From G965261055 sp965261055 [NCBI: Fibrobacteria bacterium] (lineage in GTDB: Bacteria; Fibrobacterota; Fibrobacteria; UBA11236), in the NCBI GenBank assembly GCA_965261055.1, contig OZ253440.1, positions 806,001 through 870,000 on the forward strand: 64,000 bases of DNA, given 5' to 3'. A model generated the notes under the pieces. That model was not told the DNA's origin. It worked only from the letters and a program-made list of their open reading frames with translations, and ran no database searches. Position numbers and translations under genes: made by a program. The stretch's first letter is position 1; the number at the start of each line of letters is the position of its first letter. Below, piece after piece: positions 8,100-54,363 of this stretch.

Positions 8100-9046
8100 C
8101 TATTGTTTAATCTTTTTTGTTTTAAACAAGTATAGTAACAACACTAAAACAAAACCAATTAAGATTGATGGCAATACTACAACATAGAAAAGCATTGCCA
8201 TCGAAACGCAATCAACACTGCTAACTCCTACTAAACTTGTAAAAAGTAAAATATTAACACCTTCTCTCACTCCAATATTAAAAAAAGTAAGAGGAAATAT
8301 GTGAATCATCCCAATTAAAGGGGTAAAAATCAATAATGCAGAAAAAGGAATTGGTAAATTCAATGATTTAACAATAAAATATATTGATAAAATTTGAAAC
8401 ACCTGAATTAGCACAGTTATAATTATAGTTTGCTTAAAATGTTTTCTCCAATTATCAAGAATCTTTACCCATTTTTGGAAAAACAATATTTTTTTCAAAA
8501 ATGAAATTTTCTTTAGATAACTCCAGAACAGAAGACCTAAAATAGAAACGATCATACAAATAGACATTGGTAAAATAAAGTAGAGGAAAAGGAGTCATGT
8601 AATCATGAAACCAAATCATAGATATCCAAAAAATAACTTGAATCGTCATGAAACCAAAAACTCTACCTATTACTAAAGATTGAGCAGAATCAAATTGAGA
8701 TTTTATTTGTTTCCCAAGAATAGTTGACCTTACAACATCACCACCAAAACTGGAGGGCAAAAACAAACTAGCAAAAGCACCTATATAGATTAACTTTAAA
8801 AAAAGCCATAAAGAAGGTAGAGGACGCCTAGATAGCAATATCCTCCATCTCCAAGCTTGTAGAAAATTTATCACAACAGTTTGCACTAAAATTGATAAAA
8901 ACAAAAACCATAAAGAAGTGTTTTTAATCGTTTCCCAAACTTGAGGAAAAGGGATAAAAATTAAAAATGATCCATAGAATAACTAGAGTCAAAACTAACT
9001 TAAACAGTTTTGATTTTAGCACCAAAATAATTTTATTTAAAAACAT
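8100..9046 (-). pseudogene. Frameshifted UPF0104 / lysylphosphatidylglycerol synthase-type transmembrane protein
   Basis: Three overlapping frames on the minus strand together make one polytopic protein of about 310 residues of the UPF0104/AglD flippase-like family. The N-terminal piece starts at an ATG at 9046 (MFLNKIILVLKSKLFKLV). A frame change near 8965 leads into WETIKNTSLW and the family's QAWRWRILLS motif. That frame contains FLPSSFGGDVVRS, equivalent to the family's conserved PGGxGD-type loop. A second frame change near 8570 leads into the C-terminal piece with FFNIGVREGVNILLF. At least two frameshifts are needed, so a functional product is unlikely unless the sequence is in error. 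Confidence 0.78.
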
Positions 9047-12474: not shown

Positions 12475-15400
12475 ATGTACTTCCAAGATTTAGTTTTAAA
12501 TCTTCAACAATATTGGACTAAACAAGGTTGCCTTTTAGCTCAGCCTTATGATTTAGAGAAAGGTGCTGGAACATTTAATCCAGCTACCTTTCTTCGTTCT
12601 CTTGGACCAGAGCCCTTTTCATCCGTTTATATCGAACCTTGTCGCCGTCCTACCGATGGTCGTTACGGAAAAAATCCTTTAAGGCTACAACACTATTATC
12701 AACTACAAGTAATTTTAAAACCTAGTCCCGATAACATTATAGATCTTTATCTTGATTCTCTTCGAGCGATAGGAATTGCTCCCGAAGAACATGATATTCG
12801 TTTTGTACACGATGATTGGGAAACGACGGCACTAGGAGCTTGGGGTTTAGGTTGGGAAGTTTGGTTTGATGGAACAGAAGTAACGCAATTCACATATTTT
12901 CAACAAATCGGTGGTATTGAGCTTAGTCTAATACCTGGTGAAATTACTTATGGCTTAGAACGTATTTGCATGTTCTTGCAAAAAGTTGATAATGTTTTTG
13001 ATCTTAAGTATAATGAGTCTTTAACTTATGGTGATATTTATCACCAGAACGAAATTCAATTTTCAAAACACAATTTTGAAATAGCTCCTATTGATTTGTA
13101 TCTAGAACTATTTCAAAAGAATTCAAAATTAGCTCAAGATCTATGTGAACAACAATTACCAATTCCTGCCCTCGACTATGTTATTAAGGCTAGCCATTGT
13201 TTTAATATTTTAGATGCTCGAAATGCAATTTCTGTAAGAGAGAGACAAGACTATATTTTACAAATTCGCACATTAGCTCAACAAGTTTCTTTGAGTTGGT
13301 TAGATAGTCGAAAAGCACTAAACTACCCTTTACTCAAAAACCATACGATTCAAGAAAATATCTCTACACATAAAAGAGTATCTCCAAATACTACAAAAAA
13401 AAACGGTTCTTTTTTGTTAGAGATTGGTGTAGAAGAAATGCCAGCACAAATCTTTCCTTCTTTACATAAGCAACTCCCTGAACTATGGAAAAAATATATT
13501 ACACCTTTAAATCTAAAATTTTCTAAACCTAAATTTTATAGCACTCCTCGCAGAATTTCTATCCTAACAGACTCAGTAAATTTACAACAAAAAAATACAA
13601 GTTCAGAATTAAAAGGCCCTCCTTTAAATATTGCTCAAGATAAAAATGGAGAGTGGACTCAAATTGCTAAAGGTTTTGTTAAAAAAAATCAACAAATATT
13701 AAATGATGTTATCATCAAAAAAATAGGTAAATTTGATTACTTAACCTTGAATATCCAAAATCAAGGACAAACCGCTTTTGATTTGCTTAAAGAAGAATTA
13801 CCTCTAATGCTTAGTAAAATTCATTGGTACAATACAATGCGTTGGGGGCAAGGAAATCAAACTCCATTTGTAAGACCTATCCGTTGGATCGTTGCAATGA
13901 TTGATGAATCTGTTATTCCTCTTTCTTTCTGTGGAATTGAGAGCAACAATAAAAGCTATGGTCATCGATTTTTATCACCTCAACCCTTTGTCGTTTCAGT
14001 ATCAAATTACGAACGAGACTTATTCGAAAAATTTGTTATCGTAAACCAACACCAACGTAAAGATTTACTACACGAAAAATTGACTAAAACAGCTCAAAAG
14101 CAAAATTTAAGCTTACTTCAAGATTCAGAACTCCTAGAAGAGGTAAATCAACTTATTGAATACCCATTTCCTGTCTTAGGACATTTTGAAAAAAAGTATC
14201 TAAATTTACCTCAAGCCGTTATCATTTCTGAAATGAAAGAACATCAAAAATACTTTGCCGTTCAGGAAAAATCTAAAGAACTAGCTCCTAATTTTATTGC
14301 TGTTTCTAACATGAACTTCTCAAGTTTTGACTCAGTCAGTCACGGTTTTTCTAATGTTTTAAACTCAAGGCTTTTCGATGGTGATTTTTTTCTTAAAGAA
14401 GACTCTAAACAGCCTTTAGCAACTTTCTCTTCAAATCTTTCTCAAATGACTTTCGTTTCTAAAATGGGTTCAATGAAAGATAAAGTTGATCGCATAACAA
14501 CAATCGCAGTCAATCTAGCAAAAAAACTAAATTTGCCAACAGAAACAATTGATTCCATTTTAGTAGCTTCATCTTTGTGTAAAAACGATCTAACATCTAA
14601 AATGGTTTTTGAATTTCCAAATTTACAAGGAACTATTGGTAGGCACTACGCACAAAATGAAGATTATTCAAACTCAGTTTGTACCGCTATTGAAGAACAT
14701 TACTTACCTAAAGATGCTACCGACAACTTACCTTCCAAAATAGAAGGCTCAATTATAGGAATTGCAGATAGATTGGATACGATCCTAAGTCTCTTCCTAA
14801 TTAACAAAAAACCAACAGGCTCTACCGATCCTTACGCATTGAGAAGAAGCTGTATTGCTTGTTTACATTTACTCATTCAAAATAAAATCAATCTTTCTTT
14901 GTCTGAATTATTTTCAATTGTTTTAGAGCAGAATACCTTGACAATTGATAACGAAAAAATTTCTGAAATCACTACTTTTTTCAATCAAAGATTTAAACAT
15001 ATTTTACTAACAAATGATCGCAAATGGTTACAAGATTCTCTATCTCACCATCAAGTAGAGGCTTTTTTAGTAGCTACAACACCATGGGAAAATATTTCTC
15101 AAACAATACAACGAATTCAAGCCATTTCTCAATTTTCAACACAAACTTTAAAAAACTTGACTGTGGCTATTAAAAGAATTTCTAATCTTTTAGAAAATCA
15201 TAAAGAACCTCTAACTGGTGAATGTGATCAATCTCTTTTTTCTGAAAAAGCCGAACAAGAAATCTTCAATACCCTAACAGAAAAACAAAATCTTTTTGAA
15301 GAGTCTATTAAGAATTCACTCTATTCCGAATCCTTAAAACAACTTATTAATTTGGAAACTAAGATTCATAAACTATTTGAAGAAGTTATAATTAACCATT

Positions 15401-15492
15401 CTGATCCTAAAATAAAAACAAATCGTTTAAAGCTAATTCAAAAAATACATCATATGAGTTTACTTCTGTTAGATTTCAACTCCCTTCAATAA
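12475..15492 (+). CDS. glyQS: Glycyl-tRNA synthetase, fused alpha and beta subunits
   Basis: Class II synthetase charging tRNA-Gly. The first ~290 residues are a complete alpha subunit (Gly[30 protein letters not shown], then [19 protein letters not shown]). A short linker of about 20 residues follows, then the beta subunit (Gly[45 protein letters not shown]), ending with the anticodon-binding region. Most bacteria keep the two subunits as separate genes; single-chain forms are known from Chlamydiae and a few other groups. The frame is continuous over 1005 codons with no sign of error at the junction. It starts 3 bases after the GH2-like gene. Confidence 0.96.
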
Positions 15493-19903: not shown

Positions 19904-20623
19904 TTAAAATTTTTGTACAATTACTTTGTGTTGATCGTTTATTTTAGTTTGAGACAATATTGTATGGTGCTCCATTTTCAAAGATTCTGAAACATTACGA
20001 ACAGGATCCCCATCATCCAAAATTAATGCCAGAACCGAATTAGATTCCATTGTAGACAATTTAACTTTGGCTTTTACAAAGTTAATAGGACATTTAACGC
20101 CTGTTAAATCTAAAAACTCATCAATAACGATTCCATAAGTTTTAGAATTATCAAGACTAGGATTTGAAGCATCCTCTGTAGATGTAACAGAATCTTTTTC
20201 TAAAGCACCCACTAAAGCATGCCAAGACAAATTAGCACATTTAACACGAGATGAAAATTCCTTTACTCCTTCAAAAAGTTTAAGTTTACCTAAACTTGTT
20301 TCCTGTTCTTCTAAATTAAGATTTCCTTTAGTCATTGCTCCAAATTCTTCAAAACAAACTTTAAGTTGTTCTACAGTTTTACCTTTAGCATATTCTGTCA
20401 TCATAGAACTACTCGCTTGAGAAATAGCACAACCTGAACCATCAAAAGAGATGTCTTCCACTTTATTTTCTTTGTTTAAAATCAAAAAAAGCTTAATGTA
20501 ATCTCCGCATAAAGGATTCCTACCTTCACATTCATGTGTAGCCTGAGTCATTTTTCTAAAATTTCTAGGGTTTTTATTATGGTCTAAAATGACCCGTTGA
20601 TACAATTCTTCATTATAAGACAT
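19904..20623 (-). CDS. SufU/IscU-type Fe-S scaffold fused to a TusA (SirA-like) domain
   Basis: Residues 1-145 are a U-type iron-sulfur cluster scaffold: LYQRVILDHNKNPRNF, ligand Cys39 in PLCGD, Cys65 in GSGCAISQASSSMM and Cys129 in SRVKCANLSW. A Ser/Asp-rich linker (about 146-166) leads to a TusA-like domain (170-239) with the sulfur-carrier Cys178 in DLTGVKCPINFVKAK. The fusion links cluster assembly with persulfide transfer in one chain. The gap between the first and later Cys ligands has the SufU-type insertion. It is the first gene of a pair with hemC, starting 56 bases after the lipoprotein gene. Confidence 0.9.
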   Translation of the reverse strand: MSYNEELYQRVILDHNKNPRNFRKMTQATHECEGRNPLCGDYIKLFLILNKENKVEDISFDGSGCAISQASSSMMTEYAKGKTVEQLKVCFEEFGAMTKGNLNLEEQETSLGKLKLFEGVKEFSSRVKCANLSWHALVGALEKDSVTSTEDASNPSLDNSKTYGIVIDEFLDLTGVKCPINFVKAKVKLSTMESNSVLALILDDGDPVRNVSESLKMEHHTILSQTKINDQHKVIVQKF

Positions 20624-21777: not shown

Positions 21778-23772
21778 TTAGACATAAAATGTAAGTCCTA
21801 AAAAAAAGCTTCTACCTGAATTAGGTTGATAACGAAAGTCGTTATAAATAACATTAGTTAAATTATAAATACTCCCTTGGACATAGAAGTTATCATATTT
21901 AAGATTTACGAAACTAGACCATAACAAAGATCCTTCATTGTGTTGGTCTGAAAAATTTGTCTGTCCTTCAAAATAAGTACTCCTGTAATTCAAAGTAAGT
22001 GAAGTTTTCAATCTTGGAAAACCGAACCAAGTCAAATCAGCATGATGCTTCCAGCGATGTGAAAAAGCTGGAACATTTCCAAAAAATGGAGAGGTAGGAT
22101 CGTTAATGACACTTCGCAAATATGTTGTTGTTGTTTTTAATCTCCAAGCAAGTAACATTGAGTACCGAGATAAAGATGGAATCCAATTTGTAGAAAATTC
22201 AAAACCTCGACTAATATAAGAGAATTGATTTTCGTAACGACTATAACGCTCATTTAAAAACACTAGTTCTATGGGATTCTGATAACGATAAATAAAAACT
22301 GACAATCTAGACTGCGTCCAAGTTAAAAATTTTGTTTGAAGTTGCAACAAATGTGTCTTAGCCGTTTGCAGATTTAAGTTTTTTAAAACTGTATGATTAT
22401 CACCTAAAAATTCATCCAAACTAGGAGACTTTTGTTCAAATCTATATTGAGTTAAAACTCTAATCCAATTGTTTTGATATTGTTCACTGATATTGAAATG
22501 ATATGAAAACTTATTCTGAGAAAAAGCATGTACATTCTTTGTAATTAATTCAACAGAGTCCGATTTTAAGTAATAACCTGTATAATTAAGTTTGATTTGC
22601 GTTTTAAACTTAAACCAATTCCAAATTATTTTTTTACCAAAAGAACCTAACCACATTTCCGCATTAGGCGGAGCAACAAAAGAATTTCTAGGTATTAAAT
22701 TTAAATCTTTAATTTTTTCATATTCCAAGAGCAATCCCAATTGAAAAATAAAAGGTTCAATTTTAAATTGAACTTTAGAATCTCCTTGTAAGGTCCAAAG
22801 TTCTCTTGCCAATTCAAATCGATAAACGCCGTCTTTGCCATTAGGATCTTTAAAGTCTTCTTGACTAAAACTATGCATTAACTTCGTAATAAAAAACTGA
22901 ATTTTAGAGTTTTTAAAATGATTTTTAATTTGTGTTTCAATAGAATATTTTGTAACAATAGAAAATGATGTCTCTTCATCTATTCCTGGAAAATGTCGAC
23001 GATATCCCTGTAAATTCAAACTTGTTTTACAACGAGTTTGAGAATTCAAGTTATAAAATAATTGCCCTTGAACAAAAACATTATAATACTGATTATTAGA
23101 ACGGTAGTCAATAGCATCGTCTTCATTGTTAAATGCTGTATTTTGATTATTTAGATAAGGGAAATTATTTTTAGCCAATTCACTAACTCCAAAAATATTG
23201 TACTGAAGTCCTTTAAAATTTTCTTTTAAATAAGCCGAAAATTGATATTGAGAAAAGCTTCCAATTTTAGCAGACGCACCTAATTCAGATTCTTTAGAAT
23301 CATCTTTTTCAAAATAAGCTGTATACAAATAAATAGATAACAAGCCACTATAAAATAAACTCGGATTTTTTAAACCAAAAGCATCTATTTCTATTCTAGA
23401 AATAAGTTGTATTGGTATTTTACTTACATCTACAGAAGTATTAGCTTGGTTATTTAAAAGAACATCATCTAAAAAGAATAAAATTTGTTCAGATTTTCCA
23501 CCTCTAAAAGATAAAGAACTAAAGGCACCTAAACCTGACTGTTTTCGAACAGATAAACCTGGTATTTCTTGAAGTAATTCATCTAAGCTAATTTGTCTTT
23601 GTACTTTATTTTGTGGAATCCTTAAAACTTGATTATTGTCATTTTCTAAAATCACAAATTCAGGTAAAAGGTATCCTCCACTCTGTTCTCCGAAGCAAGG
23701 AATCCAACTAAGATAAAAACAAAAAATACTAATTTTAAATAAAAAACCTGTATTTTCTTGCGTGGTTATCAT
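21778..23772 (-). CDS. TonB-dependent outer-membrane receptor, probable corrinoid (BtuB-like) transporter
   Basis: A 664-residue outer-membrane receptor. It has an N-terminal signal sequence (hydrophobic about 10-28), then a plug domain with ISLDELLQEIPGLSVRKQSG, SSLSFRGGKSEQILFFLDDV and a run ending RIEID. A long barrel of alternating aromatic strands closes with GLTFYV, the usual terminal aromatic residue pattern. Its ATG overlaps the stop of the adenosyltransferase gene (ATGA), giving translational coupling. Riboswitch control and the adenosyltransferase neighbour make a corrinoid the likely cargo. The barrel itself does not prove the substrate. Confidence 0.88.
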   Translation of the reverse strand: MITTQENTGFLFKISIFCFYLSWIPCFGEQSGGYLLPEFVILENDNNQVLRIPQNKVQRQISLDELLQEIPGLSVRKQSGLGAFSSLSFRGGKSEQILFFLDDVLLNNQANTSVDVSKIPIQLISRIEIDAFGLKNPSLFYSGLLSIYLYTAYFEKDDSKESELGASAKIGSFSQYQFSAYLKENFKGLQYNIFGVSELAKNNFPYLNNQNTAFNNEDDAIDYRSNNQYYNVFVQGQLFYNLNSQTRCKTSLNLQGYRRHFPGIDEETSFSIVTKYSIETQIKNHFKNSKIQFFITKLMHSFSQEDFKDPNGKDGVYRFELARELWTLQGDSKVQFKIEPFIFQLGLLLEYEKIKDLNLIPRNSFVAPPNAEMWLGSFGKKIIWNWFKFKTQIKLNYTGYYLKSDSVELITKNVHAFSQNKFSYHFNISEQYQNNWIRVLTQYRFEQKSPSLDEFLGDNHTVLKNLNLQTAKTHLLQLQTKFLTWTQSRLSVFIYRYQNPIELVFLNERYSRYENQFSYISRGFEFSTNWIPSLSRYSMLLAWRLKTTTTYLRSVINDPTSPFFGNVPAFSHRWKHHADLTWFGFPRLKTSLTLNYRSTYFEGQTNFSDQHNEGSLLWSSFVNLKYDNFYVQGSIYNLTNVIYNDFRYQPNSGRSFFLGLTFYV

Positions 23773-24338
23773 TCCTTATAACCATTATCCCATAAGTATT
23801 CTGGCTTTTTTTCCAGAGATGAAACCAAACGGGCTAATACAAAAAAAACATCACTTAAACGGTTTACATAAGCTAAATAAATTTGATGCATTTTGTTTTC
23901 TTTAGACCAAGCAACAACATTTCGTTCAACACGACGACACTGAACACGACATAAATGACTATGACAATTCATAAAATTACCTCCTGCTAATATAAATGAT
24001 TTTAAAGGTGTCAACTCAACTGAATCAATCATTACTTCAAGCTCTTTAACTTGCTCTTGAGTTATAACAGCAGGCTTTTCTGTATCCGCAATAGCATAAC
24101 CTAAATCAAACAAACAGTTTTGTATTTTTTTTAAAAGACTAGTCCAAGCATTTAGTTCTTTGAATTGAGTGTGTTCTTCTAAATAGGTTCTTAAAAAACC
24201 CATTTGCACTCCTAATTCCTCAAACTCACCGTAAAGATGTATCAATGGATTATCTTTAGATGTAAGTTTTCCTGAGACGGTTTGTGTTTGACCGCCATCA
24301 CCAATTTTCGTGTAAACACGATGTATGCGTATTGCCAT
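23769..24338 (-). CDS. Cob(I)alamin adenosyltransferase, PduO type
   Basis: ATP:cob(I)alamin adenosyltransferase (ATR/PduO family), making adenosylcobalamin from imported corrinoid in the cytoplasm. The 189 residues carry the ATP-binding start VYTKIGDGGQTQTVSGKLTSK and the helix-bundle motifs CRVQCRRVERNVV and YVNRLSDVFFVLAR. The family's DEL after the Gly-rich start reads EEL here (GEFEELG), a mild change. It is the first gene downstream of the cobalamin riboswitch and overlaps the TonB receptor by 4 bases. No de novo corrin-ring genes are seen nearby, so it probably serves salvage. Confidence 0.92.
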   Translation of the reverse strand: MAIRIHRVYTKIGDGGQTQTVSGKLTSKDNPLIHLYGEFEELGVQMGFLRTYLEEHTQFKELNAWTSLLKKIQNCLFDLGYAIADTEKPAVITQEQVKELEVMIDSVELTPLKSFILAGGNFMNCHSHLCRVQCRRVERNVVAWSKENKMHQIYLAYVNRLSDVFFVLARLVSSLEKKPEYLWDNGYKE

Positions 24339-24374
24339 ATTTTTCCTAGTTCCGTAGGGGGTTTAATATCATTA

Positions 24375-24535
24375 AGTATATAAAGAATATCCTGGCTCTA
24401 GCTATACACTTTTCTCCTTCCCATAATTCAGCATTTGATACCAAAAAACAGTGGCTTTTGAAAAGTAAAACTATTACAGTGACGGACTCGCCTTCGAATT
24501 TCACGAAGTTCCTCCTTACACAATCATATTTAAAT
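24375..24535 (-). promoter_or_regulatory. Cobalamin riboswitch
   Basis: Read on the minus strand, the leader of the adenosyltransferase operon contains the ordered B12-element blocks. First is a GGAGGAACTTCGTGAAATTC stretch (counterpart of GGGAA..GGTGAAA-TCC), then GTCACTGTAAT, GCCACTG and GGGAAGG, then AGCCAGGATA (B12-box end). A CCTA/TAGG pair close to the start codon could hide the ribosome binding site when ligand is bound (inference). It explains the absence of a gene at 24339-24604 and governs corrinoid uptake and adenosylation. Confidence 0.85.
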
Positions 24536-24604
24536 AAAATAAACTATCCAGTCAAGCATAAAAGTGTTTTAATTCAGAAACATTTTATTCTACATTGTCG
24601 ACCT

Positions 24605-26926: not shown

Positions 26927-29900
26927 CTATTCCGTCACCTCAACACCGAAAATTTCTATCTCATAAAAAGCAAGATTGCCTACCTTAAAGGTTGTCACCA
27001 CTTTATTAAAAACAGTTGATGGACTTGGAATCACTATAGTATTTTGTGTTGCATTTCTAATTGTATCTATTTGAACAACAGTAGTATCATTCATAAATGT
27101 GACTGTACTACGATTCACAGTAGAATAATACTGGTTATGACCATAAAAGGTATAAAAACCCTTATGATAAGTTTTAGAAAAATGATGGGTAATCGTTGCA
27201 CCATTCTGATTACCAATTGTTACTTGATACGCTTTAGAAGCACTAGCATCTGTTGTCTTATCGCCATCAGAAATGGCTGCTATTTGTTGTGCTTCTGTGC
27301 TATAATCGGTATTCGAAGCTAAAAAAAAGGCTGTTATTGTATGAGTAATAGAATCACCTGTTCCCACAGAATCCGCTATCCCTGTTGAAATGTCTTCTAA
27401 TCCTATCAATTCATCTCCAAAAATCTCTATCTCATAAAAATGAGTCGAAAGTTTCGGAAAGGTTGTCACCACCTTATTAAAAATAGTGGATGGATTTGGA
27501 GTCACTGTAATATCCTTTGTTGCATTTGTAATTGTCACTGTTTCAACAACCTGATCATTAAACATAAACGATACAGTAATACCATTTGTCCTATAAATAG
27601 CATTATGGGCGTCACTACCATAAAAGATATAAACACCCTTATTAGAAGCCTTAGAAAAATGATGGGTAATCGTGCCATATTTGGCATTAAGGAATACTTG
27701 ATACGGTTTAGAACTACTAGCCTTAGTTGTTTTATCGCCATCAGATACGGCTCTTACTTGTTGTGCTGCTGTCTCATAATTGGTATTGAAAAGTGAACCA
27801 AAAGCTCCAGAAGGAGTGTAAGAAATAGAATCACCTGTTCCCATAGAATCCGCTATCCCTGTTGAAATGTTTTTTAATACTGTGATTATAGCAGTCGCTG
27901 TTTTAGTAGGATCTACTGTAGAAGTCGCGGTGATGGTTGCCGTGCCTAGTGTTAATGCTGTAATTTCACCAGTAGAATTGACGGTTACTACAACGGCATC
28001 ACTTGTTGTCCAAGTCACTGTTTCTCCTGCTCCACCCTCTACTTGTACTGTCGCTGTTAATTGATCGCTGAATCCGATGCCAATATTAGATGTTGTTTTG
28101 TCAAGAGAGACACTTATTACTCCGAATGCTTCCACTGTTACGACTACTGTGTCTTTAAAATTACCGTCTGTTGTTGTAACGATAATATTTGCGGTGCCTG
28201 CTAATACACCTGTGATAACACCGTTTAAATCTACTGTTGCTATATTCGCATCACCTGTTGTCCAACTCACTGACTTGTCCGTTGCATCACTAGGAACTAC
28301 CGTCGCCACGGCTGTCGCTGTTGCATTTTCTGATACTGTCAAACTATCCTCTAAAGTCACTCCTGTTACTGATACTGCTATTACTGTAATCTCTAACTCT
28401 GCTGTTTTACTAATGTCTGCTGTAGAAGTCGCTGTTATTATTGCGGTTCCTTCTGATATCCCCGTGACTTCACCACTAGAATTGACGGTCGCTATACCAG
28501 CATCACTTGTTGTCCAACTCACTGTCGTTGCGGTTCCACTCGTTGCCGATACGGCTGCTGAAAATTGAAGAACTTCACCTTGTGCAAGATAATTTTTTGC
28601 AACATAAGAGGTGTCAGGAATTAGTTTTATCAAATAAATGCCTCCTACTGGGGTTATCGCTTCCAATCCCAAAATCTCTATCTCATAAAAAGAAACATCA
28701 TCGTCACCCCCAACGGTTGTCACCACCTTATTAAAAGCAGTTAATGGATCAGGAGTCACTGTGATATCCTTTGTCGCACCCCAAATTGTAACTGTTTCAA
28801 TAACGATATTACCATTCATAAACTGTACTGTACTACCATTCATAGCAGCAATTGGAGCTCTTCTATTAGTACCGTAATAGGTATAAACACCCTTTTGATA
28901 AATCTTAGAAAGATGATGGGTAATTGTGGCACCCCTCTGATTATCAGCAATGTGTACTTGAGAGGCTACATCATCATGACTTTTAGTTGTTTTATCGCCA
29001 TCAGAGATCGCTGCTTCTTGTTGCCATATTGTGTTATAGAGATAGGACTCCAGTGACTGATGTCTAGGAATAATCACAAAACGTGATATTGTATGAGAAA
29101 TAGTAGCCCCTATTGAAAGATTTTCTAATACTGTGACGACTACTGTTGCTGTTTCCCCTTGGTCTGTTGTCGTTACGGTGATTGTGGCTGTACCTACCGA
29201 TACTCCTGTGATAATACCGTTTGAATCAACTGTCGCTATATTCGCATTACTCGTTGTCCAACTCACTGCCTTATTTGAAGCATTACTAGGAACTACTGCT
29301 GCCCATACTCTTTCAGTTCCATTTTCTCCTACTGTCGCAACACTCTTGTTTAAAGTCACTCCTGTTACCGATACGACTACTACTGTAATCTCTAACTCTG
29401 CTGTTTTACTTGGATCTGCTGTAGAGGTCGCGGTGATTGTGGCTGTTCCTAATCTTAATCCGATGACTTCACCACTAGAATTAACACTCGCTACCGAAGA
29501 ATTACTACTTGACCAAGTCACTGTCGTTGCGACTCCACTTGCCGCTGATGCAACTGCTGATAATTGAAGCGTATCTCCTATTTCAAAATTATCACCATAA
29601 GAGGCGGGAGCAGTTAGTATTACAGAATAAACTCCTCCTACTGGGGCTATCGCTTCCAATCCCAAAATCTCTATCTCATAAAAACCAAGGTCGTCAGTCT
29701 CAAAGGTTGTCACCACCTTATTAAAAGCAGTTGATGGATTTGGAGTCACTGTGGCACTAGATCCACTAGCACCTGAAATTGGAATCACTTCAACAACGAT
29801 ACTATCATTCATAAATGTGACTGTACTACCATTTATTTCATGAGAAAAATGAGAATAATATCTGTAAACACCCTTTTGATAAGTCTTTGAAAAATGATGG

Positions 29901-32740
29901 GTAATCGTTCTACCCCTCTGATTAGGAGAAATGTATACTTGAAAGTCTACCTCTGCATTAGCATTTGTTGTTTTATCGCCATCAGATATCGCTGCTATTT
30001 GATCTGCTATGGAAATATCCACAGCAAAGAAAGCTACTGTATAAGTAATAGAATCACCTGTTCCCATAGAATCTGCTATTCCTGTTGAAATATCTTTTAA
30101 TACTGTGACGACTACTGTTGCTGTTTCCCCTTGGTCTGTTGTCGTTACTGTGATTGTTGCTGTGCCTATTGATACTCCTGTTATTACACCGTTCGTATCA
30201 ACTGTCGCTATATTCGCATTACTCGTTGTCCAACTCACTAACTTGTCCGTTGCATCACTAGGAGTTACTGTCGCCCATACTCTTTCAGTTCCATTTTCTC
30301 CTACTGTCACAACACTCTTGTCTAAAGTCACTCCTGTTACCGATATCGGTATTGCTGTGACTGTCACCGTTACTGTATCTGCTTTTGAATCATCTACTGT
30401 AGAGGTCACTATTATTTTCGCTTCTCCTACTAATACACCTGTTACTAAACCTTCTGATACAGTCGCTATTAATTCATCACTACTTGACCATCTCACTGTT
30501 TGTGATGCTCCACCCACTACTATTACTGCCACTGTTAATTGTTCGCTACTCCCTACTTCAATACTTGATGTCGCTTTATTCAAAGAGACACTCCTTACCG
30601 CTAGTGCCGCTGTGACTGTCACCGTTACGGTGTCTGCTTTTGAATTATCTACTGTAGAGATCGCTATTATTTTCGCTTCTCCTGCTGATACACCTGTTAC
30701 TACTCCCTCTGATACCGTCGCTATTAGTTCATGAAGACTTGTCCAACTCACTGTTTGTGATGCTCCACCCACTACTATTACTGTCACTGTTAATTGTTCG
30801 CTACTCCCTACTTCAATACTTGATGTCGCTTTATTCAAAGTGACACTCGTTACCGATGGTACCGCTGTGACTGTTACCGTTACGGTGTCTGCTTTAGAAT
30901 TATCTACTGTAGAGGTCGCTATTATTTTCGCTTCTCCTACTGATACACCTGTTACTAAACCTTCTGATACAGTCGCTATTAGTTCATGAAGACTTGTCCA
31001 ACTCACTGTTTGTGATGCTCCACCCACTACTATTACTGCTACTGTTAATTGTTCGCTACTCCCTACTTCAATACTTGATGTCGCTTTATTCAAAGTGACA
31101 CTCGTTACCGATGGGGTTACATTTACTGCCGCCGCTGTGACTGTCACCGTTACTGTATCTGTTTTTGAATCATCTACTGTAGAGGTCGCTATTATTTTCG
31201 CTTCTCCTGCTGATACACCTGTTACTACTCCCTCTGATACCGTCGCTATTAGTTCATGAAGACTTGACCATCTCACTGTTTGTGATGCTCCACCCACTAC
31301 TATTACTGTCACTGTTAATTGTTCGCTACTCCCTACTTCAATACTTGATGTCGCTTTATTCAAAGTGACACTCGTTACCGATGGTACCGCTGTGACTGTT
31401 ACCGTTACGGTGTCTGCTTTAGAATTATCTACTGTAGAGGTCGCTATTATTTTTGTTTCTCCTACTGATACTCCTGTTACTAAACCTTCTGATACAGTCG
31501 CTACACTCGCATCACTCGTTGTCCAACTCACTGCTTGTGATGCTCCACCCACTACTATCACTGCAACTGTTAATTGTTCGCTACTCCCTACTTCAACACT
31601 TGAGGTCGCTTTATTCAAAGAGACACTCCTTACCGCTAGTGCCGCTGTGACTGTCACCGTTACGGTGTCTGCTTTTGAATTATCTACTGTAGAGGTCGCT
31701 ATGATTTTCGCTTCTCCTGCTGATACACCTGTTACTACTCCCTCTGATACCGTCGCTACAGTCGCATCACTTGTTGTCCAACTCACTGTTTGTGATGCTC
31801 CACCCACTACTATTACTGTCACTGTTAATTGTTCGCTACTCCCTACTTCAATACTTGAGGTGGATTCGCTCAAAGAGACACTCCTTACCGCTGGTGCGGG
31901 GGCTACTGTTACTGATACTGTTGTTCTGTGAGATCCGTCTGTTGTCGTTACGGTGATTGTTGCTGTGCCAACTCCTACTGCTGTTATAACACCACTTTGA
32001 TTTACGGTCGCTACTTGACCATTACTTGTTGACCATGTCACTGTTTTTTCGGTCGCATCGGTTGGTAATACTGTCGCTACTACTGTTGCCGCTCCCTCTA
32101 CTATTAAACTCACTGTAGATTCATCAACACTCACACCCGTTACACTTACTGATTCTGCTGTTACTATTACGGCTACTGTGTCTGTGTACCCTCCGTCTGT
32201 TGTCGTTACGGTGATCGTTGCGGTTCCTACTGAATCTCCTGTTATTACACCGTTTAAATCTACTGTCGCTATTGCTTCATTACTACTTGACCATGTCAAT
32301 GCTGGGTTGCTTGCATCAGTTGGTAATACGGTCACTTCTACCGGTAATGTATCTCCCACTACTAAATTGACTGTATCACTACCAACACTCACACTACTTA
32401 CATCAACTGATTCTGCTGTTACTGTTACCGATACTGTGTCTGTGTACCCTCCGTCTGCTGTCGTTACGGTGATCGTTGCGGTTCCTACTGAATTTCCTGT
32501 TATGATACCGTTTAAATCTACTGTCGCTATTGCAGTATCATTACTTGACCATATCACTGTTTTATTTGTCGCATCGGTTGGTAATACGGTCACTTCTACT
32601 ATTGATACACTTCCCACTATGAGATTGACTGTAGCACTACCAACAAACACACGACTTACTGGAATTGGTGTTGAATCGTCAAAAAGGTTGCAATTGAAAA
32701 CGGATAATGTTAGCAATATAAATGTAAATAACTTAATCAT
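26927..32740 (-). CDS. Giant Big_2-repeat surface lipoprotein with four C-terminal-type beta-sandwich domains
   Basis: A 1937-residue lipoprotein. The chosen ATG at 32740 has GGGGAG before it and opens MIKLFTFILLTLSVFNC, a lipoprotein signal with Cys17; the frame open to 32860 has no such start. About 15 bacterial Ig-like (Big_2) repeats of ~85 residues follow, each with a W(S/T)xS/D-x-IATV core and GVxTGVSxGxAxI. Repeats 4-9 are nearly identical. Four copies of another ~135-residue module are interspersed from mid-protein and close the C-terminus: STGIADS-x-GTGDSI, SDGDKTT, ITHHFSK-x-x-x-KG-Y, F-NKVVTTF and a final FYEIEI-x-G. That module looks like a galactose-binding-type beta-sandwich, which is inference. 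Likely an outer-surface adhesin or polysaccharide-binding protein. Confidence 0.85.
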   Translation of the reverse strand: MIKLFTFILLTLSVFNCNLFDDSTPIPVSRVFVGSATVNLIVGSVSIVEVTVLPTDATNKTVIWSSNDTAIATVDLNGIITGNSVGTATITVTTADGGYTDTVSVTVTAESVDVSSVSVGSDTVNLVVGDTLPVEVTVLPTDASNPALTWSSSNEAIATVDLNGVITGDSVGTATITVTTTDGGYTDTVAVIVTAESVSVTGVSVDESTVSLIVEGAATVVATVLPTDATEKTVTWSTSNGQVATVNQSGVITAVGVGTATITVTTTDGSHRTTVSVTVAPAPAVRSVSLSESTSSIEVGSSEQLTVTVIVVGGASQTVSWTTSDATVATVSEGVVTGVSAGEAKIIATSTVDNSKADTVTVTVTAALAVRSVSLNKATSSVEVGSSEQLTVAVIVVGGASQAVSWTTSDASVATVSEGLVTGVSVGETKIIATSTVDNSKADTVTVTVTAVPSVTSVTLNKATSSIEVGSSEQLTVTVIVVGGASQTVRWSSLHELIATVSEGVVTGVSAGEAKIIATSTVDDSKTDTVTVTVTAAAVNVTPSVTSVTLNKATSSIEVGSSEQLTVAVIVVGGASQTVSWTSLHELIATVSEGLVTGVSVGEAKIIATSTVDNSKADTVTVTVTAVPSVTSVTLNKATSSIEVGSSEQLTVTVIVVGGASQTVSWTSLHELIATVSEGVVTGVSAGEAKIIAISTVDNSKADTVTVTVTAALAVRSVSLNKATSSIEVGSSEQLTVAVIVVGGASQTVRWSSSDELIATVSEGLVTGVLVGEAKIIVTSTVDDSKADTVTVTVTAIPISVTGVTLDKSVVTVGENGTERVWATVTPSDATDKLVSWTTSNANIATVDTNGVITGVSIGTATITVTTTDQGETATVVVTVLKDISTGIADSMGTGDSITYTVAFFAVDISIADQIAAISDGDKTTNANAEVDFQVYISPNQRGRTITHHFSKTYQKGVYRYYSHFSHEINGSTVTFMNDSIVVEVIPISGASGSSATVTPNPSTAFNKVVTTFETDDLGFYEIEILGLEAIAPVGGVYSVILTAPASYGDNFEIGDTLQLSAVASAASGVATTVTWSSSNSSVASVNSSGEVIGLRLGTATITATSTADPSKTAELEITVVVVSVTGVTLNKSVATVGENGTERVWAAVVPSNASNKAVSWTTSNANIATVDSNGIITGVSVGTATITVTTTDQGETATVVVTVLENLSIGATISHTISRFVIIPRHQSLESYLYNTIWQQEAAISDGDKTTKSHDDVASQVHIADNQRGATITHHLSKIYQKGVYTYYGTNRRAPIAAMNGSTVQFMNGNIVIETVTIWGATKDITVTPDPLTAFNKVVTTVGGDDDVSFYEIEILGLEAITPVGGIYLIKLIPDTSYVAKNYLAQGEVLQFSAAVSATSGTATTVSWTTSDAGIATVNSSGEVTGISEGTAIITATSTADISKTAELEITVIAVSVTGVTLEDSLTVSENATATAVATVVPSDATDKSVSWTTGDANIATVDLNGVITGVLAGTANIIVTTTDGNFKDTVVVTVEAFGVISVSLDKTTSNIGIGFSDQLTATVQVEGGAGETVTWTTSDAVVVTVNSTGEITALTLGTATITATSTVDPTKTATAIITVLKNISTGIADSMGTGDSISYTPSGAFGSLFNTNYETAAQQVRAVSDGDKTTKASSSKPYQVFLNAKYGTITHHFSKASNKGVYIFYGSDAHNAIYRTNGITVSFMFNDQVVETVTITNATKDITVTPNPSTIFNKVVTTFPKLSTHFYEIEIFGDELIGLEDISTGIADSVGTGDSITHTITAFFLASNTDYSTEAQQIAAISDGDKTTDASASKAYQVTIGNQNGATITHHFSKTYHKGFYTFYGHNQYYSTVNRSTVTFMNDTTVVQIDTIRNATQNTIVIPSPSTVFNKVVTTFKVGNLAFYEIEIFGVEVTE
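30354..31890. repeat. Six tandem ~255-bp repeats inside the giant Big_2 gene
   Basis: The marker GCTGTGACTGT(C/T)ACCGTTAC recurs at about 30354, 30610, 30865, 31133, 31388 and 31643. Spacing is ~255 bases (85 codons) except one of ~268, which carries a 4-codon insertion. Units are near-identical, so copy number could change by recombination or slippage. Confidence 0.9.
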
Positions 32741-32779
32741 AGAAATCTCCCCTGTATGGGTAAAACCCTGTATGGGTAA

Positions 32780-32814
32780 ATAATAACAATATTCTATAAC
32801 TCTAGCAAGTATAA
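32780..32814 (-). promoter_or_regulatory. Probable promoter of the giant Big_2 gene
   Basis: On the minus strand, TTGCTA (32803-32808) and TATTAT (32780-32785) are separated by 17 bases, a good sigma-70-type pair 40 bases before the ATG. The 28-base block 32787-32814 is shared, with few changes, with the block upstream of the next Big_2 lipoprotein gene (35148-35175). Between the promoter and the start lies a direct repeat of CCCTGTATGGGTAAA. Confidence 0.6.
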
Positions 32815-33147
32815 TAAGAAAAAAGAAAAAAAAGACTACATTCCTCATTACTTTAATCATTTTTAATCATTAGTAATATAGACTATAACTACATAGTCTT
32901 TACATGATTTTCGTAACAATATTTAAAACTGCATCAATTATAAATCACCGTAACGATCTATTCTATAAAAAAATTCATTTTCCAAAAACCGCTTATACTT
33001 TTTAAATCATTTGTACTTAAGGTAAATATTGAAATATTGAAATATTGCTCGTTTTTTGTTCTTTAAAACACTATCACTTTTTCAGTTAACTTGAGAACAG
33101 AATGTTCATCTTGCGTCAATTCCAACTGGTCACACAAAAGGTTACAC
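32815..33147. other. Intergenic region, no gene seen
   Basis: AT-rich spacer. From about 32971 onward it is the first copy of a sequence found again from 35191 (the downstream part of the 2.2-kb tandem duplication), including a run of GAAATATT repeats. I see no coding frame. Confidence 0.6.
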
Positions 33148-33174
33148 AAAAAAAGAACCCTTTAGGGCTCTTTT
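33148..33174 (-). terminator. Rho-independent terminator after Big_2 lipoprotein copy A
   Basis: Read on the minus strand, GAGCCCTAAAGGGTTC folds into a short hairpin followed by a run of seven T. It sits 40 bases beyond the stop at 33216, and an identical copy lies at 35367-35393. Confidence 0.82.
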
Positions 33175-33215: not shown

Positions 33216-35090
33216 TTATAATACTGGAGCTCCCAATATTTCTATCTCACGAAACCTTTGCCACTTCCCATCAAAAGTAAGCTTCACTTCATCAAATTGA
33301 ATATCTTTGTCTGGAGCAAATGGGACATTCTGCTCAGTATTCGTACGTGTAATCCTACTAATTGTGATCGATTCCTGTACAACTCCTTTCAAAATAAAAT
33401 CAAGAGTAGAACCATCTACCTGATTACTGCCAAAGCTATTATAATATATAAAAATACCATCAGTATAAGTTGTATCCAAAGTAAATGTTATCGTCTCTCC
33501 GCCAGCATTCCTTATTGATACTTGTCTGTCATTATCCAGACTCGGATCATCAGGATGCTTACCAGTGGTCAATGTATTACCATCTGTTATACGAGCTATA
33601 TTCTCAGCATCGGTACCTACAGAAATCCAATTACCCGCAACTAGCGTTGTGGTTACAGATAAATCTGAAATTAATTCTGGTCTAGATCTCACAAGAATTG
33701 GTCTTTCTGCATACTTCGTAGCATCAAAAACAGAGGTGACCCGAATTATTACTTCTCCTCCTGTTATTCCCCTCACTACTCCAATACTATCAACTGTAGC
33801 TATACTACTATCACTTGAAGACCATACAACAGAATCTGTTGCCCCATCTACAGTAGCTATTTGATGGCTAAAATCTGGATCACTCTGCCTACCAAAATTA
33901 TAAATAGTATCTAATCTTGACTCAATAGTTATAGATGTTATCGCTGGGATAATCTCTCTTAAAACTGTGACTGGTACAGTGACAATAAATTCACCTACTG
34001 CTACATTTATTTCTATCGCACCCTGTGATAAAAAGGTGACCAAGCCGCTTTCATCTACTGAAGCTGTCGTAGTATCTGTCGACGTATAAGTCACTGTACC
34101 AGCGGTATGCTCTAGCGGTGATACCCTTACAGTTAACTGCTGTGGAGAACCACTTATCGCATTGCCTACTAAAACTTGTGGAATAACTGATAAACCTGTC
34201 ACTGATACTGGAACGTTGTTCACTATAATAGCTATACTATCTAATTCTTCTGGTGTTACTATAGAGGTTGCCTTAATCGTGACCTCTCCTACTGATATAC
34301 CTGTAACAATCCCTGAATTATTAACAGTAGCTATAGATGTATCTGAAGAGCTCCAAGTTAATAACGTAGATGCTCCTCTCTCTTCTGTAACTGTTGCTGT
34401 TAAAGTTAATCTTCCTCCTACTTCAATATTAGAGGAGGAGGGGGAATCTATCCTCACTGATGTTACTTCAGCTGCCATTCGATCTAGAGAAACTGTAATT
34501 GTTCTACTACCTGACTTAGTGTTATCAAATGTAGATGTCGCTGTAATCATTCCTGATCCTGATCCAACACCTGTCACTAAACCTGTAGCACTAACTGTTA
34601 AAACACTCGGCAAAGCACTCGTTGACCATTCTACACTTTCTGATGCTCCCGAAATAACGTCAACAATAGATCGCAACTGTGTCCTTCCAGCAATTGATAT
34701 AGTATCACTACCACCAACTGAAATTACTTCAACGCTTGTCACCGATGGTAATGCTTCTACTGTAATCTCGGATTCAGAAAAAATTGTATCTGTAACTGTC
34801 GATATTGCCTTAATCTGTACAGAACCAACTGCTTTCCCAACTACAACTCCACTACTATCAACCGTTGCTATACTTGTATCAGAAGAATACCAGACAACTG
34901 TAGTATCTGCATTTCCTGTAACAGTCACCGTTGCTGTTAATGTTGTACTCGACCCTTGTTGAATTGTCACAGATTTTAGATTCAATTCTATAAAATCCAC
35001 TGAAATTGGTGTTGCAACTGTCGGTGGAGCATCTCCACAGTTGACAATAAGAATCACTATCAGTAATGTAAATAAATTTAAGATACCCAT
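33216..35090 (-). CDS. Big_2-repeat surface lipoprotein, copy A
   Basis: A 624-residue lipoprotein from ATG 35090 (GAGGAG site upstream), with signal MGILNLFTLLIVILIVNC and Cys18. The open frame extends 20 codons further up but lacks a signal there. It contains five to six Big_2-type repeats (WYSSDTSIATVDSSGVVVG, WSSSDTSIATVNNSGIVTG) in place of the giant's fifteen. One C-terminal ~150-residue module (RITDGNTLTTGKHPDD, ITFTLDTTYTDGIFIYYN, DEVKLTFDGKWQRFREIEIL) is a distant relative of the giant protein's end module. Together with copy B and the giant it forms a family of exported, probably surface-bound binding proteins. Confidence 0.87.
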   Translation of the reverse strand: MGILNLFTLLIVILIVNCGDAPPTVATPISVDFIELNLKSVTIQQGSSTTLTATVTVTGNADTTVVWYSSDTSIATVDSSGVVVGKAVGSVQIKAISTVTDTIFSESEITVEALPSVTSVEVISVGGSDTISIAGRTQLRSIVDVISGASESVEWSTSALPSVLTVSATGLVTGVGSGSGMITATSTFDNTKSGSRTITVSLDRMAAEVTSVRIDSPSSSNIEVGGRLTLTATVTEERGASTLLTWSSSDTSIATVNNSGIVTGISVGEVTIKATSIVTPEELDSIAIIVNNVPVSVTGLSVIPQVLVGNAISGSPQQLTVRVSPLEHTAGTVTYTSTDTTTASVDESGLVTFLSQGAIEINVAVGEFIVTVPVTVLREIIPAITSITIESRLDTIYNFGRQSDPDFSHQIATVDGATDSVVWSSSDSSIATVDSIGVVRGITGGEVIIRVTSVFDATKYAERPILVRSRPELISDLSVTTTLVAGNWISVGTDAENIARITDGNTLTTGKHPDDPSLDNDRQVSIRNAGGETITFTLDTTYTDGIFIYYNSFGSNQVDGSTLDFILKGVVQESITISRITRTNTEQNVPFAPDKDIQFDEVKLTFDGKWQRFREIEILGAPVL

Positions 35091-35366: not shown

Positions 35367-35393
35367 AAAAAAAGAACCCTTTAGGGCTCTTTT
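35367..35393 (-). terminator. Rho-independent terminator after Big_2 lipoprotein copy B
   Basis: Same hairpin and T-run as at 33148-33174, 36 bases beyond the stop at 35429. It would also insulate copy A's upstream region from read-through. Confidence 0.82.
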
Positions 35394-35428: not shown

Positions 35429-37276
35429 TTATAATACTAGACGTCCCCGTATTTCTATCTCACGAAGCCTTTGCCAATTCCCATCAAAAGTAAGCTTCAC
35501 TTCATCAAATTGAATATCTTTGTCTGGAGTAAATGGAACATTCTGCTTAGGATGCGTATCCATAATCCCACTAATTGTGATCGATTCCTGTACAACTCCT
35601 TTCAAAATAAAATCAAGAGTAGAACCATCTACCTGATTACTGCCAAAGCCATTATAGTATGTAAAAATACCATCAGTATAAGTTGTATCCAAAGTAAATG
35701 TTATCGTCTTTCCAGTAGCATTCTTCATTGTTACTTGTGAACCATTATTCAAATTCGGATCATCAGGATGCTTACCAGTGTTCAATGTGTTACCATCTGT
35801 TATACGAGCTATATTCTCGGCATCGGTACCTACAGAAGTCCAATTACCCCCAACTAGCGTTGAGGTTACAGATAAATCTGAAATTAATTTTGGTATATAT
35901 TTCACAACAATTAGTTTTTCTGCATACTTCGTAGAATCAAAAACAGAGGTGACCCGAATTATTGCTGTTCCCTCTGTTATTCCCCTCACAAATCCAATAC
36001 TATCAACTGTAACTATACTACTATCACTTAAAGACCATACAACAGAATCTGGTGCTCCATCTACAGTAGCTATTTCATAGCTAAAATCTAGAGTAGAGTC
36101 CCTATCAGAAGTATAAATAGTATCTAATCTTGACTCAATAATTATAGATGTTATCGCTGGGATAATCTCTCTTAAAACTGTGACTGGTACAGTGACAATA
36201 AATTCACCTACTGCTACATTTATTTCTATCGCACCCTGTGATAAAAAGGTGACCAAGCCGCTTTCATCTACTGAAGCTGTCGTAGTATCTGTCGACGTAT
36301 AAGTCACTGTACCAGCGGTATGGTCTAGCGGTGATACCGTTACAGTTAACTGCTGTGGAGAACCACTTATCGCATTGCCTACTAAAACTTGTGGAATAAC
36401 TGATAAACCTGTCACTGATACTGGAACGTTGTTCACTATAATAGCTATACTATCTAATTCTTCTGGTGTTACTATAGAGGTTGCCTTAATCGTGACCTCT
36501 CCTACTGATATACCTGTAACAATCCCTGAATTAACAGTAGCTATAGATGTATCTAAAGAGCTCCAAATTAATAACGTAGATGCTCCTCTCTCTTCTGTAA
36601 CTGTTGCTGTTAAAGTTAATCTTCCTCCTACTTCAATATTAGAGGAGGAGGGGGAATCTATCCTCACTGATGTTACTTCAGCTGCCATTCGATCTAGAGA
36701 AACTGTAATTGTTCTACTACCTGACTTAGTGTTATCAAATGTAGATGTCGCTGTAATCATTCCTGATCCTGATCCAACACCTGTCACTAAACCTGTAGCA
36801 CTAACTGTTAAAACACTCGGCAAAGCATTCGTTGACCATTCTACACTTTCTGATGCTCCCGAAATAACGTCAACAATAGATCGCAACTGTGTCCTTCCAG
36901 CAATTGATATAGTATCACTACCACCAACTGAAATTACTTCAACGCTTGTCACCGATGGTAATGCTTCTACTGTAATCTCGGATTCAGAAAAAATTGTATC
37001 TGTAACTGTCGATATTGCCTTAATCTGTACAGAACCAACTGCTTTCCCAACTACAACTCCACTACTATCAACCGTTGCTATACTTGTATCAGAAGAATAC
37101 CAGACAACTGTAGTATCTGCATTTCCTGTAACAGTCACCGTTGCTGTTAATGTTGTACTCGACCCTTGTTGAATTGTCACAGATTTTAGATTCAATTCTA
37201 TAAAATCCACTGAAATTGGTGTTGCAACTGTCGGCGGAGCATCTCCACAGTTGACAATAAAAATCACTATCAGCAA
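35429..37276 (-). CDS. Big_2-repeat lipoprotein, copy B, start codon apparently lost
   Basis: A 615-codon frame nearly identical to copy A, with the same Big_2 repeats and end module. Where copy A has GAATTTATATGGGTATC, this copy has GAATTCCTAGGTATC, so the ATG is gone although the GAGGAG site and the following signal-peptide codons remain. The first alternative is a TTG at 37276, which leaves only nine residues before the lipobox Cys, too short for export. The promoter-like block seen before copy A is missing too. The frame has stayed open, so the damage is recent, or the copy serves as a recombination donor. Confidence 0.7.
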   Translation of the reverse strand: MLIVIFIVNCGDAPPTVATPISVDFIELNLKSVTIQQGSSTTLTATVTVTGNADTTVVWYSSDTSIATVDSSGVVVGKAVGSVQIKAISTVTDTIFSESEITVEALPSVTSVEVISVGGSDTISIAGRTQLRSIVDVISGASESVEWSTNALPSVLTVSATGLVTGVGSGSGMITATSTFDNTKSGSRTITVSLDRMAAEVTSVRIDSPSSSNIEVGGRLTLTATVTEERGASTLLIWSSLDTSIATVNSGIVTGISVGEVTIKATSIVTPEELDSIAIIVNNVPVSVTGLSVIPQVLVGNAISGSPQQLTVTVSPLDHTAGTVTYTSTDTTTASVDESGLVTFLSQGAIEINVAVGEFIVTVPVTVLREIIPAITSIIIESRLDTIYTSDRDSTLDFSYEIATVDGAPDSVVWSLSDSSIVTVDSIGFVRGITEGTAIIRVTSVFDSTKYAEKLIVVKYIPKLISDLSVTSTLVGGNWTSVGTDAENIARITDGNTLNTGKHPDDPNLNNGSQVTMKNATGKTITFTLDTTYTDGIFTYYNGFGSNQVDGSTLDFILKGVVQESITISGIMDTHPKQNVPFTPDKDIQFDEVKLTFDGNWQRLREIEIRGRLVL

Positions 37277-54359: not shown

Positions 54360-54363
54360 TTTT

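What the first reader, a model, noticed from the sequence alone, without database searches (positions are those of the whole stretch)
26927..32740. Giant Big_2 lipoprotein with a repeated, unrecognised C-terminal-type module
The ~135-residue module occurs four times in this protein and in divergent form at the ends of two neighbours. Its invariant core runs from SDGDKTT through ITHHFSK, G-Y-x-YY and NKVVTTF to EIEI-x-G. I cannot match it to a named domain, though the pattern suggests a discoidin-like beta-sandwich that binds a glycan or similar ligand. Alternation with 15 Ig-like spacers suggests a long surface stalk with several binding heads.
Basis: partly seen in the sequence, partly recalled or inferred. 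Interest (0 to 1): 0.65.

Follow-up and report, generated by a model that had tools for sequence, protein, structure and literature searches.

The report
Surface stalk with variable lectin-like heads
A bacterium encodes a very long, probably surface-anchored protein made of 15 stalk domains and four copies of a head domain predicted to fold like known sugar-binding modules, and two neighbouring copies of a related gene keep almost the same stalk but have diverged at the head end, which suggests that this end is the part being varied.

Summary
ORF 26927-32860(-), probably starting at 32740, has 15 Big_2 domains and four copies of a ~150-residue module, laid out Big x10, M1, Big x2, M2, Big x3, M3, M4. 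Two neighbours each have 5 Big_2 domains and one divergent module at the C-terminus. No Pfam, NCBIfam or PHROGs model takes the module; the best is DUF7402, E 0.0039, below cut-off. An AlphaFold2 model (pLDDT 80, pTM 0.81) is a beta-sandwich matching F-type lectin, CBM32 and F5/8-C (discoidin) domains (Foldseek E 1.7e-6, VIA Z 13). The fold guess is supported; ligand binding is untested.

Beyond the finding: the two neighbours are a recent tandem duplication, about 99% identical in the stalk and without substitutions after the stop codon, while the last Ig domain plus module differ by 10% (72 of 80 substitutions, dN/dS 1.83). One copy lacks a usual start codon. This resembles Leptospira ligA/ligB. 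One probable distant relative (two copies) lies in a phage contig. Best reading: a fibrillar adhesin with divergent discoidin/CBM32-like heads whose tips diversify. New variant of a known kind; organism unknown.

The parts
26927..32740 (-). Giant protein G from the likely start ATG, 1937 residues: Big x10, M1, Big x2, M2, Big x3, M3, M4
   Evidence: ORF itself runs to 32860
32423..32665 (-). Big_2 domain 1 of 15 in G (the others follow down to 27881)
30104..32665 (-). Stalk block of ten Big_2 domains
29657..30097 (-). Module M1
29132..29629 (-). Two Big_2 domains between M1 and M2
28661..29131 (-). Module M2
27881..28630 (-). Three Big_2 domains between M2 and M3
27401..27871 (-). Module M3
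26930..27397 (-). Module M4, C-terminal; the one whose structure was predicted
33216..35090 (-). Neighbour gene B from the likely ATG: five Big_2 domains plus one module (ORF listed from 35150)
33219..33695 (-). Module of B
35429..37276 (-). Neighbour gene C: five Big_2 domains plus one module; no ATG, GTG or TTG in frame before a TTG that lies nine codons ahead of the cysteine
35432..35908 (-). Module of C
33219..33950 (-). Divergent stretch of B against C (codons 401-644: last Ig domain plus module); substitutions run from 33928 to 33226; the C counterpart is 35432-36163
33151..33174 (-). Terminator-like hairpin after B; the identical hairpin after C is 35370-35393
   Evidence: consensus scan

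Best explanation
The locus encodes fibrillar adhesins. An N-terminal lipoprotein-type anchor holds a stalk of Big_2 Ig domains, and the repeated module is a head of the galactose-binding-like (discoidin / CBM32 / F-type-lectin) fold that contacts a ligand, most likely a glycan, through variable loops on a conserved beta-sandwich with a buried cation site. In the giant, four heads sit beyond ten Ig domains and could bind multivalently. In the duplicated neighbours the last Ig domain plus head has been exchanged, or kept apart while the rest was made uniform by recombination, and has diversified, so what varies is the tip. Shown: repeats, mosaic divergence. Predicted: fold. Inferred: surface exposure, anchor, cation site, ligand class, purpose of the variation.
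For: Fold: AlphaFold2 pLDDT 80.4, pTM 0.81; lectinolysin lectin domain E 1.7e-6, CBM32 and fucose-binding modules below; Z 13.2, rmsd 2.9 over 132 residues. The weaker model of the B module (pLDDT 64.4) finds the same families. Frame and loops: 52% of 65 strand positions against 19% of 78 loop positions invariant among M1-M4; D-G-[D/N] and E-I-E-I kept in 6 of 6. Stalk: 15 Big_2. Tip variation: 72 of 80 B/C substitutions fall in the last Ig plus module, 8 in 1118 nt of stalk, 0 in about 240 nt after the stop codon (tail 1.3e-24 before correcting for choosing the stretch); dN/dS 1.83 in it (bootstrap p 0.0125); 51 of 58 changed codons nonsynonymous against 79% expected (p 0.03). Precedents: Ig-stalk adhesin with a fucosylated-glycan-binding CBM (PMC12077191 abstract and passages).
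Against: No binding datum. Non-lectins share the fold with equal scores (top VIA row is BIRC6, Z 13.3). The Trp after the D-G loop is absent in 6 of 6 and the F-type lectin fucose motif in 6 of 6. dN/dS in the module alone is 1.39 and not significant (bootstrap p 0.16); the excess is carried by the last Ig (3.29, p 0.01). Residue -1 before the presumed lipid-bearing cysteine is Asn in G, B and C, not the usual Gly/Ala/Ser (recalled). Organism and habitat unknown.
Confidence: 0.58

Rival explanations
1. The modules are structural or cohesive units (spacers, caps or self-association points in a surface layer or matrix) and bind no foreign ligand.
For: The fold also serves protein-protein contacts (SUN, APC10, BIRC6 among the matches); M3 and M4 stand in tandem and M1 and M2 within the chain rather than only at the tip.
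Against: Loops vary much more than strands, and the B/C tips diverge with excess amino acid change, which is not expected of a plain spacer.
Confidence: 0.22
2. The B/C difference has no functional meaning: C is a decaying duplicate without a start codon, or an older pair of which gene conversion by chance made only the stalk and the 3' flank uniform.
For: C has no usual start codon near its ribosome-binding-like site; synonymous changes are concentrated in the same stretch (about 10 of 12, p 0.001), so recombination or an older age of that stretch must be involved; dN/dS in the module alone is not significant.
Against: C keeps an open frame over 615 codons; the divergent stretch begins within a few codons of a domain start and ends just before the stop codon; dN/dS over the stretch exceeds 1. 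Plain decay would not be confined to one stretch.
Confidence: 0.35
3. The tips are diversified by a diversity-generating retroelement or another targeted mutator.
For: [quoted passage not shown]
Against: The differences are not adenine-biased: 35 of 72 involve A, about what two random bases would give with A at 32%; 43 of 72 are transitions. I saw no reverse transcriptase among the ORFs of 130 aa or more whose translations I read by eye; no profile search for one was run.
Confidence: 0.03

Closest known systems
F5/8 type C (discoidin, PF00754) and CBM32 modules
   Same: Predicted fold, full-length collinear match; D-G loop near the N-terminal side and E-I-E at the end.
   Different: No sequence match at the Pfam cut-off; the Trp following the D-G loop is absent in 6 of 6 modules but present in 16 of 29 family members compared.
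F-type lectins (lectinolysin lectin domain)
   Same: Best PDB match by Foldseek.
   Different: Fucose motif HX24RXDX4(R/K) absent in 6 of 6; cation motif h2DGx only in part (motifs from passages of PMC5712786).
DUF7402 (PF24135)
   Same: Only Pfam family touching a module (17.7 bits, E 0.0039); hhalign to eight matches of that family collinear over 86 columns but weak (probability 9%; 34% with the two phage copies added).
   Different: Below the 27-bit cut-off; 1 of 6 modules only.
Leptospira LigA/LigB
   Same: Tandem genes for Big_2 proteins with near-identical proximal parts and unique distal parts; gene conversion proposed there (passages of PMC7821625).
   Different: Lig proteins as described in those passages are Ig domains with, in some, a C-terminal extension containing putative Big_5 domains; here the variable end is one Ig plus a discoidin-like module, the 3' flank is also identical, and the upstream regions of B and C differ. 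No sequence comparison with Lig was run.
Ig-stalk RTX adhesins with CBM heads (AhLap, MpIBP)
   Same: Ig-like extender domains carrying a carbohydrate-binding module; the AhLap module binds fucosylated glycans (abstract and passages of PMC12077191).
   Different: Type-I-secreted RTX proteins with CBMs projecting from split domains; here heads are in line, four per chain, on a lipoprotein-like protein.
Module pair in IMG/VR phage contig L089
   Same: Two copies with the same end (FREIEI) and collinear alignment (27 and 19 bits).
   Different: 25-34% identity in the best local matches; without the pattern that selected it the support is weak; no Pfam hit.

Membership tests
F5/8 type C / CBM32 (PF00754) | Galactose-binding-like beta-sandwich fold | tested here: met
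   By prediction only; weaker for the B module
F5/8 type C / CBM32 (PF00754) | Score above the Pfam gathering cut-off | tested here: not met
   PF00754 not among hits for 6 of 6 modules at E up to 10 nor for the three whole proteins at E up to 1
F5/8 type C / CBM32 (PF00754) | D-[GN]-x-x-x-T-x-W loop | tested here: not met
   D[GN]xxxT in 5 of 6 modules, with the W in 0 of 6; in 29 PF00754/PF24135 matches used as yardstick 19 and 16
F5/8 type C / CBM32 (PF00754) | Binding of a sugar or lipid ligand | not testable with these tools
   -
F-type lectin | Fucose motif HX24RXDX4(R/K) | tested here: not met
   0 of 6, spacing relaxed; motif
F-type lectin | Cation motif h2DGx and the Glu near the C-terminus | tested here: inconclusive
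   D-G-[D/N] and the E of E-I-E in 6 of 6, but the residue before D is Ser or Thr, not V/A/I; geometry not measured
DUF7402 (PF24135) | Score above the gathering cut-off (27 bits) | tested here: not met
   17.7 bits in 1 of 6
Fibrillar adhesin | Large length and repeated stalk domains | tested here: met
   1937 aa, 15 Big_2; definition from passages of PMC9210967
Fibrillar adhesin | Cell-surface anchor | tested here: inconclusive
   Hydrophobic N-terminus ending in N-C in G, B and C by reading the sequence; no signal-peptide predictor available; -1 residue unusual
Fibrillar adhesin | Adhesive domain | tested here: inconclusive
   Lectin-like fold, binding untested
Leptospira Lig proteins (likeness of arrangement) | Tandem Big_2 genes, near-identical proximal part, divergent distal part | tested here: met
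Leptospira Lig proteins (likeness of arrangement) | Sequence relationship to Lig beyond Big_2 | not tested
   no Lig sequence was fetched

The most novel reading that the evidence does not exclude
C is a silent storage copy and B (perhaps others) an expressed locus: recombination within the uniform stalk and the identical 3' flank swaps a whole 'last Ig plus head' cassette, giving a tip-switching system for a glycan-binding adhesin built on the discoidin fold, analogous to antigenic variation with silent cassettes.
Probability: 0.14. Interest if true: 0.75.

Novelty: new variant of a known kind. Interest (0 to 1): 0.46.

Why it matters
The module is a sequence family that the three libraries scanned do not recognise although it is predicted to fold like well-studied lectins, so annotation would miss such adhesin heads. 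The tandem pair is a clean natural experiment: one stalk, two tips, with the boundary near a domain edge and at the stop codon. If strains show the tips moving, it would be a concrete system for studying how a bacterium varies what it sticks to.

Tried and rejected
Family libraries: Pfam, NCBIfam and PHROGs on the six modules gave only sub-threshold hits; a PDB sequence search with the profile gave nothing below E 0.08. Two Pfam hits on the giant above cut-off, PF01702 TGT (28.7 bits, residues 497-564) and PF21461 HL_N-beta (39.7 bits, 108-147), lie in stretches held by Big_2 repeats; I reject them as repeat matches. PF02089 (17.2 bits, below its 26.8, residues 1772-1824 in M3) I reject as chance.

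Relatives: genome-contig scan with the six-module alignment A1, 78 pattern matches, 0 confirmed. Viral contigs with A1, 74 matches, 0 confirmed; with M4 alone, 5 and 0. Phages and plasmids by tblastn with M4: no match; phages with the B module: no match at E 1. The genome search with A1: 0 of 4, 0 of 387, 0 of 194, 0 of 296 genomes (sets overlap); with A3: 0 of 296 and 0 of 288. There was no positive control and the window's phylum is unknown, so these zeros say little. A2 (same six sequences, B first) found one relative, 1 of 74 matches; searches from that relative returned its own contig only (14 and 81 matches), and no phage record matched its protein. Without the pattern that selected it: BLASTP E 6e-5 (V1-B, against six sequences), hhalign probability 30%, hmmsearch 8.1 bits for V2 but 2.4 for V1, the best of 384 scored shuffles being 5.6. 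I call it probable, not certain.

Organism: fused GlyQS 44-45% identical to a Verrucomicrobia and a Lentisphaeria MAG; TypA at best 58% in 59 genomes of that phylum and 56% in 60 of the Spirochaetes group. Not placed.

Profile-profile comparison with family matches: weak. Against the 29 pooled matches A1 scored 17.7; 40 column-shuffled controls reached 16.7 at most; the reversed alignment 12.8; against the 21 PF00754 matches alone 13.1, nothing; against the 8 PF24135 matches 23.5, for which no shuffles were run. My first version used wrong strands for many loci and was discarded. Of the 56 loci brought I used 29.

Spacer dN/dS was printed only for the 21 of 105 pairs with nucleotide identity above 0.7: 0.22-1.49, median 0.56, against 0.80-1.08 for the six module pairs; ranges overlap and pairs are not independent, so I do not lean on it.

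Promoters: the sigma-70 scan showed no excess (41 found, 39.6 in shuffles). It lists a site upstream of C (37382-37355) and one upstream of G but none at the TTGACA stretch that B and G share by alignment, so a missing promoter for C is not shown.

Full report
What is there. On the minus strand, 26927-32860 is one open frame. The ATG at 32740 follows GGGGAG and is the likely start, giving 1937 residues. Pfam assigns 15 Big_2 domains, and a model built from the protein itself places them ten, two and three in a row. Between and after these stand four modules of about 150 residues: M1 29657-30097, M2 28661-29131, M3 27401-27871, M4 26930-27397. Two genes upstream on the same strand, B (33216-35090) and C (ORF 35429-37276), have five Big_2 domains and one divergent module each. 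The six modules share 23 invariant columns; B and C share 28-35% identity with M1-M4.

What the module is. Of three libraries, only Pfam DUF7402 comes near (1 of 6 modules, E 0.0039, 17.7 bits against a cut-off of 27). The AlphaFold2 model of M4 from the six-sequence alignment has pLDDT 80.4 and pTM 0.81. Its best Foldseek matches among solved structures are the lectin domain of lectinolysin (E 1.7e-6), CBM32 modules and pneumococcal fucose-binding modules; 89 matches have E up to 0.001. VIA-align gives Z about 13 over 132-136 residues both for these lectins and for a domain of BIRC6, and about 12 for SUN domains, so the fold is clear and the function is not. Among predicted viral structures 18 match at E up to 0.001, several further down annotated as F5/8 type C or discoidin. 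The model of the B module is weaker (pLDDT 64.4, residues 1-32 and 38-57 mostly below 50) but finds the same families. Sequence membership is not: PF00754 does not hit, its Trp is missing in 6 of 6, and the F-type lectin fucose motif is missing in 6 of 6 (motifs from passages of PMC5712786). The D-G-[D/N] loop and the terminal E-I-E, which correspond in order to the cation site described for F-type lectins, are kept in 6 of 6, but the residue before the Asp is Ser or Thr rather than V/A/I, and whether a cation site forms was not measured. Among M1-M4, 52% of 65 strand positions and 19% of 78 loop positions are invariant: a fixed frame with variable loops.

The neighbours. B and C are a tandem duplication of about 2.2 kb. 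Substitutions between them number 8 in 1118 nt of stalk (plus one 3-nt gap), 72 in the 732 nt that follow, and 0 in about 240 nt after the stop codon, where there is one 6-nt gap. The substitutions of the divergent stretch run from 33928, a few codons inside the fifth Ig domain (which starts at 33941), to 33226, just before the stop. The chance of 72 of 80 falling there is about 1e-24 before correcting for choosing the stretch (which took 245 nt for the 3' flank). Synonymous changes are concentrated there too (about 10 of 12; p 0.001), so recombination, conversion of the flanks, or local mutation must be involved, not selection alone. Over the stretch dN/dS is 1.83 (bootstrap p 0.0125), and 51 of 58 changed codons are nonsynonymous against 79% expected when the same changes are placed at random (p 0.03). 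By part, dN/dS is 3.29 in the last Ig (p 0.01) and 1.39, not significant (p 0.16), in the module. Changes are not adenine-biased. C has no ATG, GTG or TTG in its frame near the ribosome-binding-like site; the first is a TTG nine codons before the cysteine. By alignment it also lacks an upstream stretch that B and G share, but the promoter scan does not set C apart. It may be a silent copy or a young pseudogene. B and C end in the same terminator-like hairpin.

A relative. One IMG/VR contig (L089, 7.7 kb) has a phage portal gene (Phage_portal_3, E 7e-33) and, downstream, a 714-residue protein with two copies of a related module, 63% identical to each other (hmmsearch 27 and 19 bits, hhalign probability 96%). 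Because the contig was selected by a pattern from the module's end, I repeated the test without that end: BLASTP E 6e-5 for V1 against B, hhalign probability 30%, hmmsearch 8.1 bits for V2 but only 2.4 for V1, inside the range of shuffles (maximum 5.6). It is a probable distant relative. Its place after the portal suggests a virion structural protein, which would fit a binding role; this is inference.

How it probably works. The layout is that of a fibrillar adhesin: anchor, stalk, adhesive region (definition from passages of PMC9210967). Ig stalks carrying carbohydrate-binding modules are known in RTX adhesins, and one was shown to bind fucosylated glycans (PMC12077191, abstract and passages). 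The tandem pair with constant proximal and variable distal part is like Leptospira ligA/ligB, for which gene conversion has been proposed (PMC7821625, passages). I put the fold at about 0.93, ligand binding at about 0.7, glycan as the ligand at about 0.5, and functional tip exchange at about 0.3 (my estimates). Rivals are a structural or cohesive use of the module and a plain decaying or half-converted duplicate.

Novelty. A head domain missing from the three libraries scanned, in a known fold, on a known type of stalk, with a notable mosaic pair: a new variant of a known kind. Paper searches for DUF7402 (0 papers), for Big_2 with discoidin (0) or F5/8 C (10 of 28 listed), for CBM32 with Ig-like adhesins (12 of 19 listed) and for fibrillar adhesins with diversifying selection (2) showed no description of this combination in the listings seen; the library is partial.

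Limits. The organism is unknown, no genome is held, and no strain comparison was possible. An assembly error is unlikely to make the mosaic, because the outer flanks of B and C differ, but reads were not available.

Noticed in passing
L089 2326-4470: Phage-contig protein of 714 aa with two copies of a related module, 63% identical to each other, no Pfam hit; portal gene upstream.
   Followed up: partly
12475-15492 +: GlyQ and GlyS fused in one 1005-aa protein; full-length relatives at 44-45% only in a Verrucomicrobia and a Lentisphaeria MAG among the 28 loci found.
   Followed up: partly
24365-24563 -: Cobalamin riboswitch (Rfam, E 1.1e-7) just upstream of genes 23769-24338 and a TonB-type receptor 21778-23772 with weak B12-receptor matches.
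   Followed up: no
53379-54843 +: C5 cytosine methylase followed by an R.HinP1I-type endonuclease; a second, partial methylase ORF at 51433-51825 (-).
   Followed up: no
8100-8904 -: Two overlapping ORFs (8100-8567, 8455-8904), the first matching the C-terminal half of an LPG-synthase-type membrane family: a possible frameshift in one gene.
   Followed up: no
19904-20623 -: By reading only: an IscU/NifU-like N-terminal part followed by what looks like a TusA-like C-terminal part in one protein; not run against any library.
   Followed up: no
48968-50788 -: 606-aa protein without a Pfam match at E 0.001.
   Followed up: no
26927-32860 -: Pfam PF01702 (tRNA-ribosyltransferase) and PF21461 score above their cut-offs on Big_2 repeat stretches: an example of curated cut-offs failing on repeats.
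   Followed up: partly
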